Shown here: positions 365 to 7,727 of the stretch, piece by piece
Layout of the letters: each line of letters starts with the position of its first letter
Numbering within the stretch: the first letter of the stretch is position 1
NCBI GenBank assembly: GCA_016281295.1
Contig: JAEEII010000229.1
Coordinates: 1-7,727, forward strand
Direction of reading: 5' to 3'
DNA: 7,727 nt
Source of the DNA: Bacteroidales bacterium
GTDB taxonomy: Bacteria > Bacteroidota > Bacteroidia > Bacteroidales > F082
Program-made: the position numbers and the translations under genes
The notes under the pieces: model-generated
Seen by the model: only the letters and a program-made list of their open reading frames with translations
The model's database searches: none
Told to the model about the DNA's origin: nothing

Positions 365-419
365 GTGCCCACAACGCAGGCCCCGGCAGACAAGTGGCAA
401 GGCACCGGACGGTTTCATC
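345..419 (+). repeat. Direct repeat, left copy
   Basis: This copy aligns with 2408-2484 at high identity. The core GTGAGTGCCC is followed one base apart by ACAACGCAGGCCCCGGCAGA, and both copies end in ACGGTTTCATC. A one-base indel after GTGAGTGCCC and scattered substitutions put the copies in different reading frames, so the repeat is not preserved as protein. The two copies lie in the same orientation and bracket the metallopeptidase/PIN pair. It resembles a conserved 3'-flanking segment of a mobile gene, but I cannot name the element. Confidence 0.8.
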
Positions 420-566
420 CCCAAACACAATATGTAGTCACCCCACGCTCATGAATACAATCTTTGAAAGACAACTCATTCCTCCAGAACAAACAAAATA
501 AGTAAGAAGAAGTGATTTTTAAAGATTCTCCTCCAATTGTTCGAAGAGATTATGTATTTTTGTGAA

Positions 567-1727
567 ATGAATGTTGAGATTAACATAGACAGACTTCGTT
601 ACCTTCTGTCCCTCTATGGAATGGAAGAGGTTGAATTATTGTCGTACCTCAACAAAGACCGGAAGCGGAAGTTCACATCTCTTCAAGTCTTTTCCTCTCC
701 CATTGATTTCAATATCTTGAAGAAGATAGACGCACTTTTCGGGAAAGGGTATCCTTTCTATATTGACCCTTCCCCCATTGCTGCTACCAAAAACATGAGC
801 GTTTTCTTCCGAAAAAAGAATCTGGGAGATGATCTGAATTTTACGGCTAAAAAAGTCGTAAGTGATTACGAGTCGTTAAAGAACTACCTCGCCTCGCTCG
901 ACACCCTGTCAAACATCACCACTAAAATCACCATTCCGCGTTGCACACAGCGCACATCTCCCAGAGCGGCGGCTGATATGGTTCGCGCCATGATCTACCC
1001 AAAGCAAAAAAGCAAGACAGACCGGGACTTCCTCAAGGCACTTATTGGCAACCTTGCCGATGTCGGGGTCCTCGTATTTGAGTATCTGGAGTCGGCAAAC
1101 AAGTCGGAAAAAGCCAATATCGATGGCTTCTTTCTTAGGCCAAACTTTATTGTCCTCAAACGATATAGTTATTACCGAAGAGAGATTTTCACCCTTCTTC
1201 ATGAAGTGGGTCATTGCATTCTGAATGTCGAAGAGGTTGAGTCTCACAATGTTTTGTCCTTGGACTACTCAAAAATGTCCTCCATTGAACGCTGGTGTAA
1301 TGACTTTGCCTACTACTTCCTTGTTGGACAGTATGCAGACACAATTTCAGGCATCATCCGAGCAGACGGCACAAATGATTATCATTTCCCGCTCATAGAA
1401 GACCTTTCCCGGAAGTGCTTCATCAGCAAAAGAGCTCTTTTCACGCGTTTGTTTTACTGTGGAAAAATGACGCAAACGGACTATCAAAACGTAGTCTACG
1501 ACTTAAATCAGCGTGCTGAACAGTTCAAAGAGCATCAGAAAGAGACATTGAAAGCGAACGAAGAAGATGGACGCAAACAGACGATTTCTGCTCCTCAACC
1601 TATCTATTCGCCCAATTTCTTGCGTACACTGTCTATTGCCCTTAACGACGGTATGGTACGTCCGGCAGATTTATATCGGATGAAGATTCCGGCAAAGGTT
1701 GTGGAGGGCCTTCCTAGATGGTTGTAG
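567..1727 (+). CDS. ImmA/IrrE-family zinc metallopeptidase
   Basis: The protein is a 386-residue cytoplasmic protein of the ImmA/IrrE (DUF955/COG2856) class. The zinc-binding HEVGH motif is at residues 212-216, in the context FTLLHEVGHCILN. A probable third ligand, E241, sits in IERWCNDFAYYFL, which matches the usual E-x(4/5)-FA helix. About 110 mainly helical residues precede the peptidase domain; they occupy the place of the DNA-binding region in related proteins, but I see no clear HTH. The C-terminal 100 residues are helical and charged. Family members cleave repressors or antitoxins. The downstream PIN-like gene overlaps by 10 bp, indicating coupled translation and a toxin-antitoxin-like pair. 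I chose ATG 567; ATG 552, with GAAGAG 3 bases upstream, and TTG 537 are in-frame alternatives. No close promoter match was found. Confidence 0.85.
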   Translation: MNVEINIDRLRYLLSLYGMEEVELLSYLNKDRKRKFTSLQVFSSPIDFNILKKIDALFGKGYPFYIDPSPIAATKNMSVFFRKKNLGDDLNFTAKKVVSDYESLKNYLASLDTLSNITTKITIPRCTQRTSPRAAADMVRAMIYPKQKSKTDRDFLKALIGNLADVGVLVFEYLESANKSEKANIDGFFLRPNFIVLKRYSYYRREIFTLLHEVGHCILNVEEVESHNVLSLDYSKMSSIERWCNDFAYYFLVGQYADTISGIIRADGTNDYHFPLIEDLSRKCFISKRALFTRLFYCGKMTQTDYQNVVYDLNQRAEQFKEHQKETLKANEEDGRKQTISAPQPIYSPNFLRTLSIALNDGMVRPADLYRMKIPAKVVEGLPRWL

Positions 1728-2302
1728 TTGTTGACACATGCTCCCTCCACCGTCTGGTGGAATACTATCTCCCATTAGACAAGAAGGGTGTTTTGGTCCC
1801 CCTGTTCAAGAGTCTATTTGAGGGCCGCCAGATATTGATGACCGAGTTCGTTTATGAAGAATGTCAGCGGATGGCAAAAGGTGTCATCATAAAGAAACTT
1901 CCTTTTATGTCTTCTGCTGGATTCAAAAAGAATCTCATCAAGGCTGAGGCCATCCTGCCAAATCAGAAACTTCTTCGTATCGTTCTAGATCATTTTACCA
2001 TCAAGGCAAAATACAACTCTCTCAAACCAGAACAGCAAGAAACCCAGAAGTCAGCGTACCTGCAAAGTGGCGATTTTTCATTGATGTATTGTGCATATCA
2101 AAAGAAGAAGCGCCTGAATACGGGTTTATTTCCGGAAGATTTGAAGATATTAACTGACGAAAGCGGCACTGAGAACGGCAATAGTTGCTTCAAGAAAATC
2201 CCTACTTGTTGTGCGTTTCTTGGTGTGGATACCCTTAATATCAAGGACTATCTGGAGATTATTACCGATGGAAAGATTGAACTGATTATAGCTCAAGAAT
2301 AA
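1718..2302 (+). CDS. PIN-like nuclease, DUF4411 type
   Basis: The product is a 194-residue soluble protein resembling the PIN-like DUF4411 family, putative metal-dependent ribonucleases. The N-terminal strand carries the first acidic residue (MVVVVDTCSL, D6). An acidic helix follows (TEFVYEECQRM, E43/E47/E48). D119 lies in LQSGDFSLMY, and the fourth acidic position is in KILTDES (D147/E148). The C-terminal section, with KIP at 160-162 and FLGVDTLNIKDYL after it, resembles the DUF4411 ending in which a conserved IP precedes a final strand. The start codon lies 10 bp inside the metallopeptidase gene, so the two are probably translationally coupled. In such pairs the PIN-like protein is the likely toxin and the ImmA-like protein the regulator. 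This role is inferred from the family. All expected acidic residues are present, so the gene looks intact. Confidence 0.75.
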   Translation: MVVVVDTCSLHRLVEYYLPLDKKGVLVPLFKSLFEGRQILMTEFVYEECQRMAKGVIIKKLPFMSSAGFKKNLIKAEAILPNQKLLRIVLDHFTIKAKYNSLKPEQQETQKSAYLQSGDFSLMYCAYQKKKRLNTGLFPEDLKILTDESGTENGNSCFKKIPTCCAFLGVDTLNIKDYLEIITDGKIELIIAQE

Positions 2303-2946: not shown

Positions 2947-2978
2947 CCGATAGTAAGCCTGACTTACCGAGGGAGAGA

Positions 2979-3445
2979 TTAATTTGAGGTGTTCAGTACG
3001 GCGACCACCTTTTCAATCATAGTATCTTGTAGACCATGATATGAATCTACTTGGATTAGGTGGTCAAGTTGATGTCTGTTGAATTCTTGGACTGGAAGAT
3101 CATCGATGATAAGATACGATTCGAACGGGCCACATTCTTTGATCCAGGCATCGATATTATCACCTCGGCGTTTACTGATTACAGGAACGATGTCGGTGAC
3201 AAAGTCGGGCAGATGCCGAGAATCCTACATACGCCTAATATCCTGATAGGTCATCAGGTCTTGCCACGATGATGTGACAACAATGTCGGCGTTTGTCCGT
3301 GTAACTATCTGGGATAGACACTCAACGCACTGCGGGTCAAAGAGAGCTCCAAATTCATCTTTTCAGGAAGCGAATTCTTTCCCATGATCAAGCTATGGTA
3401 GTCCGTAGCCATCACGCCATCGAAGTCCAAGAAGATAATCTTCAT
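2979..3445 (-). pseudogene. Broken HAD-superfamily gene (one frameshift, one stop)
   Basis: From ATG at 3445 the minus strand reads MKIIFLDFDGVMATDYHS, a textbook HAD motif I (D7, D9). At an A4 run (3360-3363) the frame is lost. Adding one A restores EKDEFGALFDP and then IVVTSSW (motif II, T58-S60), K92 as a possible motif III lysine, and YLIIDDLP (motif IV, D115/D116), ending at TAA 2979-2981. One TAG remains at 3225-3227 (codon 74, after RRM), where relatives usually have tryptophan. The 467-bp length plus one base is exactly 156 codons, giving a 155-residue protein. The layout resembles the small HAD domain of the Swiss Army Knife RNA-repair type (HAD_SAK). Two independent lesions indicate a dead gene. 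Confidence 0.85.
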
Positions 3446-3532
3446 TAACTAATATTATGCTGTTTTATACAAACACACACAAATAGTTTGATTTTTCTGC
3501 CGTCACAATCGGAATAATGAGTACTTTTATAA

Positions 3533-3540
3533 CAAAGATA
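3533..3540 (-). promoter_or_regulatory. Possible Bacteroidales -7 box for the HAD pseudogene
   Basis: On the minus strand this reads TATCTTTG, an exact match to the Bacteroides -7 consensus TAnnTTTG, about 88 bases upstream of the HAD start. No good TTTG -33 element lies at the expected distance, so support is weak. The whole 3446-3545 gap separates two divergent genes and should carry promoters for both. For the plus strand only TACTTTTA (3522-3529), a one-base mismatch, is visible. Confidence 0.25.
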
Positions 3541-3545
3541 TAATT

Positions 3546-4370
3546 ATGGATGGAATAGGAAAAGAAGAAATGAGCTACCGTCAGGGTTGTATCAACACCC
3601 CTGACGGAAATATTAATATCAATAGTCTGGTTTCTTACTATGAGAGTGAAGATCAAGCCAGTGCTATTCTCTCTGTCTGCAATAGCCATGAGACACTCCT
3701 GCAATTGATGGATAAGTTGAAAAGGGAGAGCGAGTTTATGATAAGTCCGATTGGTGATTATGATGTGCTATCTTCGATTTGCCAGGGTCTCCTTTTTGAG
3801 AACGATACGAATTCTAAGAGGGTGATGGCGGTGGCGCCTCTCCCGGCTGATGCTGATGCCGATGCGTCGTATGTAGAGGCGGCTACGGACAGCCTCCAGG
3901 GTTTTATCAGGGAACTCCTGCGGGCTGTCTTATCCAACGTCATTCTTGATAAGATGCCCGTCGTGGAGCTGGTAGACAAAGAGCGGGCGTTGTTTTATCT
4001 GGAGTTGCCCACGTGGTATAATGGAAACAGCGAAAGAGTTATCAAGCCGATTGATTGGTTCGATATTAGAAAAGTGTGGGAGAAGAGCAGAAGTTTTAGG
4101 TTTTCCCCGGCCTTATCTTCCGAGAGCTTGAATGGATTGGTCGAACGTCTGACTATTAATGCGGAAGAGTATATAAGCCGTCCAGCGAGGCGAGGTGTAC
4201 TTTGGATTGATGTCCCTGAGGAGTGTGATGATAATATGTCCGATATTCATGAGATTATCTGGCGATTTCGGGAACGTGGTTATATGATCCTTTTGGGAGT
4301 AAGAAGTATTACTGGGCAAAGGGATTTCAAGGCGATATTGTGTTTAATGGAGGGGGAAATATGGAAATGA
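3546..4370 (+). CDS. Uncharacterised protein A, first gene of a four-gene operon
   Basis: I do not recognise this 274-residue protein. There is no signal peptide or membrane segment, so it is probably cytoplasmic. The N-terminal half is mixed helix and strand. An acidic/alanine repeat (PADADADAS, near residue 100, encoded by near-identical GAT GCN units) may be a linker between two domains. The C-terminal half ends in a compact alpha/beta pattern: GVLWIDVPEECDD, a helix IHEIIWRFRERG, a strand YMILLGVR, then a final strand. No nuclease, kinase or NTPase motif is evident. It opens the plus-strand operon and overlaps the next gene by 10 bp, which implies stoichiometric co-expression. ATG 3570 (Met9), preceded by an AAGAAG stretch, is a plausible alternative start. 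Confidence 0.8.
   Translation: MDGIGKEEMSYRQGCINTPDGNININSLVSYYESEDQASAILSVCNSHETLLQLMDKLKRESEFMISPIGDYDVLSSICQGLLFENDTNSKRVMAVAPLPADADADASYVEAATDSLQGFIRELLRAVLSNVILDKMPVVELVDKERALFYLELPTWYNGNSERVIKPIDWFDIRKVWEKSRSFRFSPALSSESLNGLVERLTINAEEYISRPARRGVLWIDVPEECDDNMSDIHEIIWRFRERGYMILLGVRSITGQRDFKAILCLMEGEIWK
4349..4356 (+). promoter_or_regulatory. Strong Shine-Dalgarno before gene B
   Basis: GGAGGGGG lies inside the 3' end of gene A, 4 bases before ATG 4361 and 10 before ATG 4367. Such a purine-rich site is stronger than those of the other genes here and supports an internal start rather than the upstream ATG at 4340. Confidence 0.5.
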
Positions 4371-5038
4371 GTGAGAAATGGGCCATCATCAAACAGTGTA
4401 TCCAGGACGCCAATGAGCGTCAGGTGGATCAGTCGAAAATGGCCGAGTTTCTTAAGAATCAGTTTGATTTGATATTGGCCACTTTGGAAGGACTGGTTCA
4501 GGAAGGGATTGATCTGTCTGATAGAACGGTGGTTTCCAATCTGAAGGAGTTGGAACTTGCCCTTCACCAGATTCCGCAGCATCGAGTTTTCGCCTTTGAT
4601 GCATTGACTGTGATTGAGGAATTCGAGGAATATGTTGAAAGGTTTTATCATATTCTCTCGCTCCCCAAGCAGGATGCCGAAACCAGTTTCACTTGTTCTT
4701 GGATTGTGAAAAGACTTGATTTCCTGGCTGATACTATCACCAACGAGGATGAAGACGAAGAGATAGAGAAGGAGCTCGATACAAAGCAGTTATATAAGTT
4801 AACCACTTATCTTGGTATTTGCAAAACGCTTTGTGAGAACGGTAGCGCCATGATTAAGGCATACGTTGTAGGGTCTGCAGAGCATCTCGCACACGCATTA
4901 ACTTTGGTGGATCTGCCGCGTGAAGCCGAGCATTATTGGCAGTTCGTCATTTATCTTTTGTCTCAGGATAACTTGAGAATCACGCAGCGTGAAGGTCGCC
5001 TGATGGTTGCAAAAGACATTATTAATCATCTTGATTGA
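4361..5038 (+). CDS. Uncharacterised helical protein B
   Basis: The protein has 225 residues from ATG 4361 and is almost entirely predicted helix by eye, with no membrane segments and no recognised motif. An acidic run (NEDEDEEIEKELD, residues 128-140) divides it into two helical halves, suggesting a surface loop or linker. The helices carry regular leucine/isoleucine spacing, for example FDLILATLEGLVQEG, consistent with a helical bundle or a protein-interaction scaffold. The start overlaps gene A by 10 bp; ATG 4367 would give a 4-bp ATGA overlap instead. The stop is 8 bp before the next gene. Its place between A and the FGE-like protein suggests a structural or adaptor subunit of one complex, but this is inference from position only. 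Confidence 0.8.
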   Translation: MEMSEKWAIIKQCIQDANERQVDQSKMAEFLKNQFDLILATLEGLVQEGIDLSDRTVVSNLKELELALHQIPQHRVFAFDALTVIEEFEEYVERFYHILSLPKQDAETSFTCSWIVKRLDFLADTITNEDEDEEIEKELDTKQLYKLTTYLGICKTLCENGSAMIKAYVVGSAEHLAHALTLVDLPREAEHYWQFVIYLLSQDNLRITQREGRLMVAKDIINHLD

Positions 5039-5046
5039 GTTCTGCG

Positions 5047-5643
5047 ATGATAGACGAAAACGCACTTTTTGTTCTTGAACATAGGATATCTGTTGCCCAG
5101 GTTGCCAAGCGCCTGCTGAATCAGTGGATTGAAGTGCCGGAAGGTGAGGTTTCTCTTGGTGAAAGAGTCTTCCATGTCGGGGCCTTCAAAATCTCCAAGT
5201 CCCTTGTAACCGTATCTCAATGGAGTAAGGTAATGGGGCCAGAAAACCAGTTGTTACGGAGGCCTGTTACGGGCGTTTCATTTGTTGAGACCATCAGCTT
5301 TGTGACGCGTCTCAATATGTGCTGGGAAGAAGCCGGCCGGATCTCTATACCAACAGAAGCCCAACTTATGCTCGCCCGCCAGAAGGGAGTCATAGGTATC
5401 CATCACAGATGCTCGGAGATATGCTATACTCAGTATAGAGAGTTCAACGACATGGGAGACCATCATTTCATTGACAACATTCCTACGAATGAGCATTGCG
5501 GAGTGGTCATCAGGGGTATCAATGAGCGGGATTCCCTTCCGTGCGAATCGGGTATCGATTCCGTCGGATTTCGGCTCGTGCTTGTAGATTACGACAAAGA
5601 ATGGGATGTCAACGCCATATTGGCACAGTTTAATAACGTTTAA
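5047..5643 (+). CDS. Divergent FGE-sulfatase (SUMF1/EgtB-like) domain protein
   Basis: The product is a 198-residue protein with a shortened formylglycine-generating-enzyme-type fold. The hallmarks appear in order: FKISKSLVTVSQWSKVMG (residues 47-64, like the usual GKYEVTNAQYxxFM), RPVTGVSFVETISFVTRLN (72-90, like PVxxVSWxxAxxFCxWL), ISIPTEAQLMLARQKG (99-114, like RLPTEAEWEYAARGG) and a terminal SVGFRLVL (172-179, like GFRLV). The first ~40 residues lie outside the domain. The section between the PTEAQ motif and GFR is only ~60 residues, against well over 100 in typical members. The paired active-site cysteines of true FGEs are not visible, so sulfatase activation is unlikely; a binding or scaffold role as in C-type-lectin-like relatives is more plausible. 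TTG 5035 is a possible start; ATG 5047 is preferred. Confidence 0.75.
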   Translation: MIDENALFVLEHRISVAQVAKRLLNQWIEVPEGEVSLGERVFHVGAFKISKSLVTVSQWSKVMGPENQLLRRPVTGVSFVETISFVTRLNMCWEEAGRISIPTEAQLMLARQKGVIGIHHRCSEICYTQYREFNDMGDHHFIDNIPTNEHCGVVIRGINERDSLPCESGIDSVGFRLVLVDYDKEWDVNAILAQFNNV

Positions 5644-5645
5644 GT

Positions 5646-6101
5646 ATGAATAAAAGACAGGTATCGGATGCTATCAGGAAAGCGCTTGACAGAAGTCCAT
5701 ATCGCGACTTTTTTGTGAGACATGGTGGCTGTTATCGGCTTTTCTTTGAATATGATGGCCATTCAGCTCAAGTTTACTCCCCCGCCCCAAATAAAGCGTG
5801 TCTAATGGTTTTCCCGGATCAAGTTAAAGAAGACACCATCGTTGTCTCAACCGATGCGATTCGTTTGCCTCAAGATATGGATGAAGACTCCATCGCGGAA
5901 AAACTTATCAAGATCAATTCTGTCAATAAGGGGATCCGTTATGAAATGCCTTTCCTCTATCATGCCGGCCCCGATATTAATAGAGCGGTGCTGGTTATCA
6001 AGGAAGTCCGTTCAATGAGCGAGGATTATGTTTCTAATCATCTTCCAGCAGGGATAGAGGAAGTTCTGAAAGCGACGGCGGCGTTTGTAGATCAGTCCTA
6101 A
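5646..6101 (+). CDS. Uncharacterised small alpha/beta protein D
   Basis: This 151-residue protein is separated from the FGE-like gene by 2 bp, so it is surely co-transcribed. The order of elements by eye is an N-terminal helix (MNKRQVSDAIRKALDRS), strands (YRLFFEYDGH, ACLMVFP, IVVSTD), a helix (EDSIAEKLIKINS), strands (IRYEMPFLYH, AVLVIKEV) and a long C-terminal helix. This helix-strand-helix order is reminiscent of YbjN-like or type III secretion chaperone-like folds, which act as small binding modules; the resemblance is topological only. Its last 68 bases overlap the end of the opposing minus-strand gene. No catalytic motif is seen. Confidence 0.75.
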   Translation: MNKRQVSDAIRKALDRSPYRDFFVRHGGCYRLFFEYDGHSAQVYSPAPNKACLMVFPDQVKEDTIVVSTDAIRLPQDMDEDSIAEKLIKINSVNKGIRYEMPFLYHAGPDINRAVLVIKEVRSMSEDYVSNHLPAGIEEVLKATAAFVDQS

Positions 6102-7092
6102 GGTCCTGCCAAGATTGAACGGTTCTTTTGTAATCATCCTCATTGAAGAGATCGTCATCTACCAGGGACCTAAGGAAGTAGACGGTTCGTGCCAACTGAA
6201 AATCGGTTGCGCCAGATGCCTTGACCAGGCTGATGGCGGTTTGTTCCATTTTCGCAAGCCGTATCAACCCTTCCGTATATCCCATACGCCTCATAGCCCA
6301 GATGATCCTGCCCATTTCCAGATATGGCAGGAAACTGTATTCAGAGATTTCTTCGTACATAATGAAATCTTTACAGTCCAGTTCGCGGATAAACTGATCG
6401 ACCTTCCCATCTATCTCCGGCACCTTATCTGTCCGCTGGAGTTTCCCATACACGTAGAACCAATCGATGATGCGCAGCCTGCTTTCATCAATGACGAAGT
6501 CAGGCTCACCGCCTAACCTGCCGCAAAGAATCGCGTATGCGCTTTGTGGGTCATGAGAGGCCCGGACCAACCCCTCTTGTTCTTGCATAACGAAGTCTTC
6601 GTGCATCATATAGAGAATAGTCATCGCCATAATCGGGCCCTTGTGTGCTCCCCACGCGGCCTTGATCTTGTTTTCCAAGCCGGGGATCCAGCGCTTGCGC
6701 AAACGCGTGGCCGCCCACTCCGAAGCGTATTTTCCACCCGAAAGGAAGGCCCGAAGGATTCTCTTCTGGTTGTTGAAACTTTGCGTTTCGTATCTCTTAG
6801 TCAGCTGCCTGAACGCGTAGCTGACTTTTTTGCTTTTCTTGTTGCCATACCAGCGAAGCAGCGTTTCGATGGGCTCGTTACCCTTAGCGTGCATCTTCAG
6901 CCATTTGATGAAGTCCATCAATTGCCAGGGGATGTCCTTTCTCCTGGAAAGACCGGCCTCAACTTCAATAAGCAAGTTGAAAGGGAGAGATTGCAGGATG
7001 GCGTGATAGAGCTTCTTGTCCGAATCCTGCAAGCTCTCATAAATGGGGGACACTTCTTCCACAAAGAAAGCGACTAGTTCATTTACATTCAT
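6034..7092 (-). CDS. Uncharacterised helical protein E
   Basis: The protein has 352 residues from ATG 7092 (a TTG lies two codons upstream at 7098). I do not recognise it. It appears all-helical, with no signal peptide or membrane span, and is rich in W, Y, R and K. A strongly basic middle section (ATRLRKRWIPGLENKIKAAW, about residues 128-150) could contact nucleic acid or an acidic partner such as protein B; this is speculation. The gene follows gene F by 23 bp from that gene's stop to ATG 7092, so the two form a minus-strand operon. It ends inside the 3' end of gene D, a 68-bp convergent overlap. Long open frames on the opposite strand here (6115-6516, 6544-7077) are shadows of this gene. 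Confidence 0.8.
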   Translation of the reverse strand: MNVNELVAFFVEEVSPIYESLQDSDKKLYHAILQSLPFNLLIEVEAGLSRRKDIPWQLMDFIKWLKMHAKGNEPIETLLRWYGNKKSKKVSYAFRQLTKRYETQSFNNQKRILRAFLSGGKYASEWAATRLRKRWIPGLENKIKAAWGAHKGPIMAMTILYMMHEDFVMQEQEGLVRASHDPQSAYAILCGRLGGEPDFVIDESRLRIIDWFYVYGKLQRTDKVPEIDGKVDQFIRELDCKDFIMYEEISEYSFLPYLEMGRIIWAMRRMGYTEGLIRLAKMEQTAISLVKASGATDFQLARTVYFLRSLVDDDLFNEDDYKRTVQSWQDLRTDLQTPPSLSELPLSLLEDD

Positions 7093-7115
7093 AAACAACT
7101 GAGCTCTTTAACCTT

Positions 7116-7727
7116 TCATTTTCTCGTTAATTCCTCATCCGACACCCCGAAGAGTTGAGCAAAGCTCTTCCTGCAAAGGTCGGCTTCCGGAGTATCATAA
7201 TCGGAGACAACGTCAAAACCTTCTTTGATCAGATCTGCTATTTCCTGCTCGTTGGGAGTTTCTTCTCTCTCCAGTTTGAGATAGAGAAGGTCGTGAATGG
7301 CGCCGGAAATATGCACGGCATACAATTCGGTATCACGAACAGGACTGTCGGGCTTTGCATTCAAATGGCACTGAATTCCCTCAGACAGCAGATATTCCTC
7401 TTCTTTTCCGGTCCTGCCGAAAGTCCTGTAACAGATCCGTCCGCAAAGGAGGTAAAGCAACGCAGCACACGTGTCAGCCCCGGCTTTCCCACTCTCGACC
7501 GTCTTCTTCGCGGTCTCAAAAATCCGATCGGCCTCCGGCAACTTACCGTCCAGGACAGAGATGGCATCCAACAATTTCAAGCACGTTTTGCAAAGATCAG
7601 CAGTGACTCTCTTTTTCTGGGGAGACAATCTCTCACAGAGCTGGCAGAAATGGTTTGCCATTGATGCAGAAACATCATTCCACATGCTGATGAACGGCTT
7701 CAGTGCTTTCTTTTCAAACTGAGGCTT
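7116..7727 (-). CDS. Uncharacterised helical protein F, 5' end beyond the window
   Basis: The frame stays open from the stop at 7116-7118 to the right edge of the window. The codons upstream of ATG 7685 (KPQFEKKALKPFIS) read as ordinary protein, so the true start probably lies outside. At least 203 residues are visible, nearly all helical and possibly of TPR-like repeat character. Counting from Met at 7685, cysteines at 14, 17, 32 and 35 form CxxC-x14-CxxC, compatible with a zinc site but also with chance in a cysteine-containing helix pair. The gene lies just upstream of gene E on the same strand, and the two are probably co-transcribed from a promoter beyond the window. No family is recognised. 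Confidence 0.75.
   Translation of the reverse strand, partial: KPQFEKKALKPFISMWNDVSASMANHFCQLCERLSPQKKRVTADLCKTCLKLLDAISVLDGKLPEADRIFETAKKTVESGKAGADTCAALLYLLCGRICYRTFGRTGKEEEYLLSEGIQCHLNAKPDSPVRDTELYAVHISGAIHDLLYLKLEREETPNEQEIADLIKEGFDVVSDYDTPEADLCRKSFAQLFGVSDEELTRK

What the first reader, a model, noticed from the sequence alone, without database searches (positions are those of the whole stretch)
3546..6101. Compact four-gene operon of mostly unknown proteins around an FGE-like domain
Genes A to D are packed with a 10-bp overlap and gaps of 8 and 2 bp. Three have no recognisable family, and the only recognised domain is a degenerate FGE. Such tight packing implies a single complex. FGE-like domains are known in NTPase-dependent conflict systems (MoxR/vWA and related), but no NTPase is in view. 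This is the best candidate for an undescribed system in the window.
Basis: partly seen in the sequence, partly recalled or inferred. Interest (0 to 1): 0.7.

Follow-up and report, generated by a model that had tools for sequence, protein, structure and literature searches.

The report
Orphan four-gene operon, possible FtsZ link
A rare four-gene operon, probably from uncultured gut Bacteroidales, made of an inactive enzyme-fold protein and three proteins of no known family, appears to act as one unit; in one other genome its core gene sits beside proteins that resemble parts of the bacterial cell-division ring, so it may sense something and act on cell division.

Summary
Genes A (3546-4370), B (4361-5038), C (5047-5643) and D (5646-6101) have the stated overlap and gaps; A, B and D match no known family. 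They are real and rare: 6, 31 and 11 family members of A, B and C (the window's own included) among about 5.8 billion proteins. A, B and C recur on a second contig and B and C on a third (inferred from equal contig lengths); C and D are fused in four relatives. C is homologous to the N-terminal half of FGE domains but has no conserved cysteine in its C-terminal part. B is a confidently predicted all-helical protein. The MoxR/vWA reading is not supported: no NTPase or vWA domain is in view. The new clue is the only other genomic locus of B: there B follows a protein whose profile matches the FtsZ C-terminal domain and a tandem ZapA-like protein. My best explanation is a sensor-scaffold unit acting on FtsZ or the division ring, at low confidence, because this rests on one neighbourhood and A itself could not be shown to be FtsZ-like. 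I found no description of it in the papers listed; its function is unproven.

The parts
3546..4370 (+). Gene A, 274 aa, no known family; C-terminal part with a strand-helix-strand-helix-strand-strand pattern in a low-confidence model
   Evidence: AF2 model pLDDT 40, unusable as a fold
4050..4088 (+). Segment of A (residues 169-181, IDWFDIRKVWEKS) that resembles the FtsZ T7-loop/H8 segment (VDFEDVKTVMKSS); not significant on its own
   Evidence: hhalign P 0.14; 9 of 100 shuffles as good; 5 of 60 in a repeat
4361..5038 (+). Gene B, 225 aa, the core family: all-helical protein, Cys154 invariant in 26 aligned sequences
   Evidence: 31 family members; alignment; AF2 pLDDT 90.4, pTM 0.86
5047..5643 (+). 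Gene C, 198 aa, degenerate FGE-sulfatase-like protein without conserved C-terminal cysteines
5122..5415 (+). Part of C homologous to the N-terminal half of FGE domains (residues 26-123)
   Evidence: hhalign score 72.5, P 1.3e-10, 80 shuffles at most 24.0
5646..6101 (+). Gene D, 151 aa, no known family (very weak CesT-like hint in one relative); fused to C in four relatives

Best explanation
A-D is one cytosolic functional unit, probably of uncultured Bacteroidales. Shown: B is the most often found member and is predicted all-helical; C is related to FGE (a C-type-lectin-like fold) but lacks conserved C-terminal cysteines, and C and D are one protein in some relatives; A recurs beside B and C. 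Shown in one other genome: B follows a protein that matches the FtsZ C-terminal domain (no GTPase domain) and a tandem ZapA-like protein. Inferred: C-D is a ligand-sensing module, B a helical scaffold, and A (or the FtsZ-domain-like protein at the other locus) the part that docks on FtsZ or the division ring, so that a signal through C-D holds back or releases FtsZ assembly. Whether this serves defence, stress or ordinary division control is open.
For: Linkage and C-D fusion. C is FGE-related. B is a confident helical model. At L001, genes 8904-9431 (X), 9458-9850 (Y) and 10001-10804 (B) lie in a row on one strand. Y matches Pfam ZapA at 27.1 bits, cut-off 23.8; both halves of Y match a ZapA profile from six Bacteroidales proteins (N half score 21.7, P 0.0013, 60 shuffles at most 20.3; C half 28.9, P 3.7e-5, at most 17.0). 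X plus its relative at L057 match the FtsZ C-terminal domain over 94 columns in register, score 24.8, P 0.0023, 0 of 150 and 0 of 60 column shuffles as good, while IF3_C, ZapA and FGE profiles give nothing. G001 also has its own FtsZ and ZapA elsewhere.
Against: The division link rests on one neighbourhood, with 150 bp between Y and B. The X relative at L057 has neither B nor a recognised ZapA-like gene beside it, though that contig ends just past one further gene. X alone is weak: L001X against an FtsZ profile ranked 4 of 108 targets, itself first and two unrelated decoys above; each X by itself gives P 0.022 and 0.044; the P values are not corrected for the number of pairs tried. Ordinary HMM searches find no FtsZ in A or X. 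A against FtsZ is not significant and its best alignments fall in two different registers; the poor A model looks more like Schlafen/Alba/IF3-C-type folds. The genome search scored Y's ZapA match at 22.1 bits, under the cut-off. No window protein resembles ZapA.
Confidence: 0.3

Rival explanations
1. A sensor-type antiphage or conflict system in which the lectin-fold C detects a ligand and A, B or D is the effector or adaptor; the FtsZ/ZapA-like neighbours of B at L001 are coincidental or are themselves borrowed inactive modules.
For: FGS/FGE domains are described as effector or sensor parts of conflict systems, and inactive cell-division domains (MinD/ParA, FtsK; FtsZ rarely) among effectors of such systems (PMC7159879 passages; PMC10907252 passages; PMC8195603 passages). 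The window also holds an ImmA/IrrE-like gene and a DUF4411-like one, the latter under its cut-off. The set is sporadic.
Against: No NTPase, protease, nuclease or TIR domain recognised in A-D. PADLOC finds nothing in A-D. Not found in the viral, phage and plasmid searches made.
Confidence: 0.25
2. A small regulatory or secretion-linked complex with no tie to division: D a CesT-like chaperone or adaptor, C a binding domain, B a scaffold.
For: One of five D members touches Pfam CesT at E 0.15. A-D show no transmembrane segment in a hydropathy scan and no signal peptide by eye.
Against: The CesT hint is far under any cut-off and no structure of D was made. L001 puts FtsZ/ZapA-like genes beside B.
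Confidence: 0.2
3. An array of independent immunity-type genes kept together by selection but not forming a complex.
For: Small orphan proteins, sporadic distribution, mosaic A genes.
Against: C-D fusions, overlapping frames and repeated A-B-C linkage argue for one unit.
Confidence: 0.1

Closest known systems
FGE-sulfatase / SUMF1 family (PF03781), C-type-lectin-like fold
   Same: C aligns to the N-terminal half of FGE with P 1.3e-10; the family keeps IPTEAQ (FGE: LPTEAEW) and, in most full-length members, a late GFR
   Different: Shorter, below the Pfam cut-off, no conserved cysteine in the C-terminal part, linked with A, B, D
MoxR-vWA (VMAP) ternary conflict systems
   Same: May contain an FGS/FGE domain; use borrowed, often inactive domains, cell-division ones included (PMC7159879, passages)
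   Different: No MoxR ATPase or vWA domain recognised in the window
FtsZl1 family of the FtsZ-tubulin superfamily (PMC2875224; abstract, section 6 and passages)
   Same: FtsZ-derived protein in multi-gene operons, present beside ordinary FtsZ
   Different: FtsZl1 keeps the GTPase domain and has no detected similarity to the FtsZ C-terminal domain; X of L001 is the reverse. A has no GTP signature and no significant FtsZ match
ZapA (PF05164)
   Same: Y at L001 carries two ZapA-like units beside the B relative
   Different: Tandem, extra to that genome's canonical ZapA; no ZapA-like gene in the window
FtsZ-directed inhibitors and sensors (CbtA, MciZ, SulA; CapRel-Gp0.4-FtsZ)
   Same: Small proteins acting on FtsZ (search listings), or sensing through it (PMC13423816 abstract)
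   Different: No sequence comparison with them was made here

Membership tests
FGE-sulfatase family (protein C) | Sequence homology to FGE domains | tested here: met
   hhalign of 8 C sequences (of the 11-row family; P0041, P0047, P0048 left out) against 8 of the 19 FGE matches: score 72.5, P 1.3e-10, 80 shuffles at most 24.0; N-terminal half only
FGE-sulfatase family (protein C) | Score above Pfam's curated cut-off | tested here: not met
   13.2-13.3 bits against 23.3 for window C; 7 of 11 members touch the family, best E 0.0069
FGE-sulfatase family (protein C) | Catalytic cysteine pair in the C-terminal RGGS...C...GFR region (motif recalled) | tested here: not met
   No conserved cysteine there in A3; the only one conserved in at least 80%, C125 counted from base 5050 (89%), lies before it
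MoxR-vWA (VMAP) ternary systems | MoxR AAA+ or other NTPase | tested here: not met
   No Walker A in any open frame of the window, no such Pfam domain in 8 window proteins; DNA beyond the window not available
MoxR-vWA (VMAP) ternary systems | vWA domain protein | tested here: not met
   No vWA Pfam match in 8 window proteins; one DxSxS string in F only; beyond the window not available
   No Pfam match in A-D; that Pfam holds bpX models is recalled, not checked; 'bpx' occurs 0 times in PMC7159879 as searched
FtsZ superfamily (protein A) | GTP-binding signature GG.[TS]G[TS]G | tested here: not met
   Absent from A
FtsZ superfamily (protein A) | FtsZ C-terminal domain homology | tested here: inconclusive
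   T7-like segment P 0.14; A vs X P 0.05, 3 of 100 shuffles; full A vs FtsZ+X profile best in another register (P 0.026, 0 of 60); HMMER nothing; fold model unusable
FtsZ C-terminal domain (protein X of L001, not in window) | Profile similarity over the domain | tested here: met
   Two-sequence profile: P 0.0023 uncorrected, 94 columns, 0 of 150 and 0 of 60 shuffles; weaker for each sequence alone
FtsZ C-terminal domain (protein X of L001, not in window) | Recognised by Pfam or HMMER models | tested here: not met
ZapA (protein Y of L001, not in window) | Pfam PF05164 above cut-off | tested here: met
   27.1 bits, cut-off 23.8; but 22.1 bits, under the cut-off, in the genome search
Diversity-generating retroelement target (protein C) | Reverse transcriptase nearby | tested here: not met
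   None among the 8 window proteins scanned; beyond the window not testable; template/variable repeats not specifically sought (one general repeat scan)

The most novel reading that the evidence does not exclude
The operon belongs to an undescribed class of systems built on cut-down copies of division-ring parts: a GTPase-less FtsZ-domain mimic, a helical B scaffold and, in some versions, a tandem ZapA, which cap or bundle FtsZ filaments, here gated by a lectin-fold sensor pair C-D, so that ligand recognition directly switches cell division.
Probability: 0.17. Interest if true: 0.8.

Novelty: new variant of a known kind. Interest (0 to 1): 0.45.

Why it matters
If the FtsZ link holds, this would be a way to control division with mimics of the division ring's own parts, tied to a lectin-fold sensor. 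A 2026 paper reports an immune protein that senses a phage protein in complex with FtsZ (PMC13423816, abstract), so FtsZ as a hub of bacterial immunity is a live question. Even if the link fails, B is a clean orphan family with a confident helical model, and the C-D fusion gives a defined pair to test.

Tried and rejected
A as an FtsZ relative: suspected by eye from IDWFDIRKVW; tested with HMMER (best of 6 A-family sequences at rank 24, E 11, behind shuffled decoys), hhalign against decoys (FtsZ rank 29 of 108) and trimmed profiles. Left as unproven. [quoted passage not shown] no support.

D as YbjN: suspected by eye; no Pfam YbjN match in D; the family was not found in the 3 genomes tried, so no profile comparison was made. 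Solved-structure searches with A, B, C, D, X and Y gave nothing with E below 0.01; with C the best rows were unrelated CENP-S chains (E 0.011), with a DGR variable protein (2y3c) at E 0.52.

Wider occurrence: B 1 of 398 family genomes and 1 confirmed locus from 42 pattern stretches in genome contigs; D 0 of 393, which without a positive control shows little; A one weak fragment with stops in 334 genomes; viral contigs none confirmed for A, B, C, D, E, X, Y; plasmids and phages none for the queries tried: A-D DNA in plasmids, window DNA in phages, a B relative in plasmids, a C-D fusion in both. Gene E: 6 of 393 genomes, one a fragment with stops; five of the six loci were taken and held E relatives but no match to A-D among called ORFs. 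X: 5 of 396 genomes at E <= 0.01, G001 itself included; only G287 was near full length; regions of G287 and G283 were read, those of G284 and G105 were not.

Literature: searches; in the rows listed (15 of 2,102; 12 of 18; 3 of 3; 0; 10 of 13; 12 of 44; 0) I saw no description of these genes or of such a set; subscription papers are mostly not held.
Full report
What is there. The window holds, on the + strand, an ImmA/IrrE-like gene (537-1727), a DUF4411-like gene (1718-2302; under the Pfam cut-off), a stretch without an intact gene, and then four tightly packed genes: A 3546-4370 (274 aa), B 4361-5038 (225 aa), C 5047-5643 (198 aa) and D 5646-6101 (151 aa). Overlap and gaps are 10, 8 and 2 bp as reported. 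Downstream on the - strand lie E (6034-7098), which overlaps the end of D by 68 bp, and F (7116-7727, open). A, B, D, E and F have no match above a curated cut-off in Pfam or NCBIfam and none with E below 0.01 in PADLOC or PHROGs; C touches FGE-sulfatase at E 0.07. No Rfam family or tRNA was found in the window, and sigma-70-like promoters in 3300-6300 were no more frequent than in shuffles.

The genes are real and travel together. The search of about 5.8 billion proteins gave 31 family members of B, 6 of A and 11 of C, the window's own included. Relatives of A, B and C at 63, 77 and 81% identity all report a longest contig of 22,015 bp (P0035, P0002, P0039), and relatives of B and C at 49 and 46% both report 4,107 bp (P0021, P0043). 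I take equal lengths as the same contig, which is an inference. Four of the 11 C proteins (P0044, P0045, P0046, P0048) continue into a D-like domain that is 48-52% identical to D. C and D are therefore one functional unit. The source is not named; relatives are from Bacteroidales (P0034's record name; L001).

What C is. Eight C sequences against eight Bacteroidales FGE segments give an hhalign score of 72.5, P 1.3e-10, against at most 24.0 in 80 column shuffles; the match covers residues 26-123, the N-terminal half. The C-terminal part has no conserved cysteine; the one cysteine conserved in at least 80% of rows (C125 counted from base 5050, 89%) lies before it. The position of FGE's catalytic cysteines is recalled. 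I read C as a catalytically dead FGE, that is C-type-lectin-fold, binding domain. In conflict systems FGS/FGE domains are described as lectin-fold and proposed sensors or effectors (PMC8195603, PMC7159879 and PMC10907252, passages).

What B is. AlphaFold2 with 26 sequences gives pLDDT 90.4 and pTM 0.86: ten helices, no strand of three or more residues. Fold comparison places it among helical-repeat proteins without a specific relative. Cys154 is invariant in the 26 sequences. Two relatives (P0006, P0008) carry an extra C-terminal domain of about 130 aa.

What A is. Unknown. The AlphaFold model (6 sequences, pLDDT 40) is unusable, though its C-terminal pattern is strand-helix-strand-helix-strand-strand. 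Residues 169-181 recall the FtsZ T7 segment, but neither HMMER nor profile comparison makes A a significant FtsZ relative: P 0.14 to FtsZ, P 0.05 to X (3 of 100 shuffles), and with full-length A against a merged FtsZ+X profile the best alignment (P 0.026, 0 of 60 shuffles) falls elsewhere in A. I treat it as open. A is also mosaic: P0033 is identical to P0034 over 107 of 107 N-terminal positions and to the window over 165 of 165 C-terminal ones, through recombination or a chimeric assembly.

The other locus of B. One scan of genome contigs gave a single locus, L001, in a Bacteroidales MAG from roe-deer omasum; 1 of 398 family genomes had B, the same genome. There the genes run X (8904-9431), Y (9458-9850), B (10001-10804), then a 103-aa ORF; no called ORF of the 20.8 kb matches A, C or D. 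Y matches Pfam ZapA above the cut-off, and both halves match a profile of six Bacteroidales ZapA proteins. X has one near-full-length relative among 396 family genomes besides G001, at L057. The two together match the FtsZ C-terminal domain (37 Bacteroidota FtsZ; T7 loop to S9, element names recalled): score 24.8, P 0.0023, 0 of 150 shuffles (mean 11.9, sd 2.3), with IF3_C, ZapA and FGE profiles as negative controls. Against this: each X alone is weaker (rank 4 of 108; P 0.022 and 0.044), P values are uncorrected, HMMER and Pfam do not see it, the genome search scored Y's ZapA match at 22.1 bits, under the cut-off, and at L057 X has neither B nor a recognised ZapA-like gene beside it, though the contig ends there.

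How it may work. Shown: one conserved unit, degenerate FGE fold, helical B, C-D coupling. Shown once: B beside division-ring-like proteins. Inferred: C-D senses a ligand, B transmits, and A or X meets FtsZ. A lone FtsZ C-terminal domain with a T7-like loop could cap a filament, but that is a mechanism by analogy and was not tested. I give this reading 0.3.

Comparison. The MoxR/vWA reading fails on its NTPase and vWA, as far as the window reaches. FtsZl1 (PMC2875224; abstract, section 6 and passages) keeps the GTPase domain and has no detected similarity to the FtsZ C-terminal domain, the reverse of X. Inactive division domains as parts of conflict systems have a precedent in PMC7159879 (passages). 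The rows listed by seven searches of the paper library held no description of this set.

Verdict. A genuine, rare operon with no description found, whose core gene has a suggestive tie to FtsZ in one other genome; not a MoxR/vWA system on present evidence. I file it as a new variant of a known kind (multi-gene units that reuse inactivated housekeeping domains), since the evidence does not carry a stronger claim. Interest 0.45.

Noticed in passing
window 368-422 and 2433-2487: A 55-bp direct repeat (89% identical) flanks the ImmA/IrrE-like and DUF4411-like gene pair, as if the pair were a cassette.
   Followed up: no
window about 2970-3447, - strand: Remnant of a HAD-like gene (starts MKIIFLDFDGVM; family by eye), interrupted by stops and frame changes.
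   Followed up: partly
window 3546-4370: A is mosaic among relatives: P0033 joins the N part of P0034 to the C part of the window's A, both at 100% identity; recombination or chimeric assembly.
   Followed up: partly
window 537-2302: ImmA/IrrE-like regulator (HEVGH motif; RmrA and capP hits in PADLOC) overlapping a DUF4411-like gene (PIN-like by recall): perhaps a toxin-antitoxin or regulator pair.
   Followed up: no
window 6034-7098, - strand: E belongs to a Bacteroidales family of unknown function (6 of 393 genomes, one a fragment with stops); five of the six loci taken show varied neighbours and no A-D match.
   Followed up: partly
window 7116-7727, - strand: F carries two CxxC pairs (C28/C31, C46/C49), perhaps a zinc-binding segment.
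   Followed up: no
P0006 and P0008 (relatives of B): B fused to a C-terminal domain of about 130 aa with a strand-helix pattern like A and X by eye; profile tests gave no support.
   Followed up: partly
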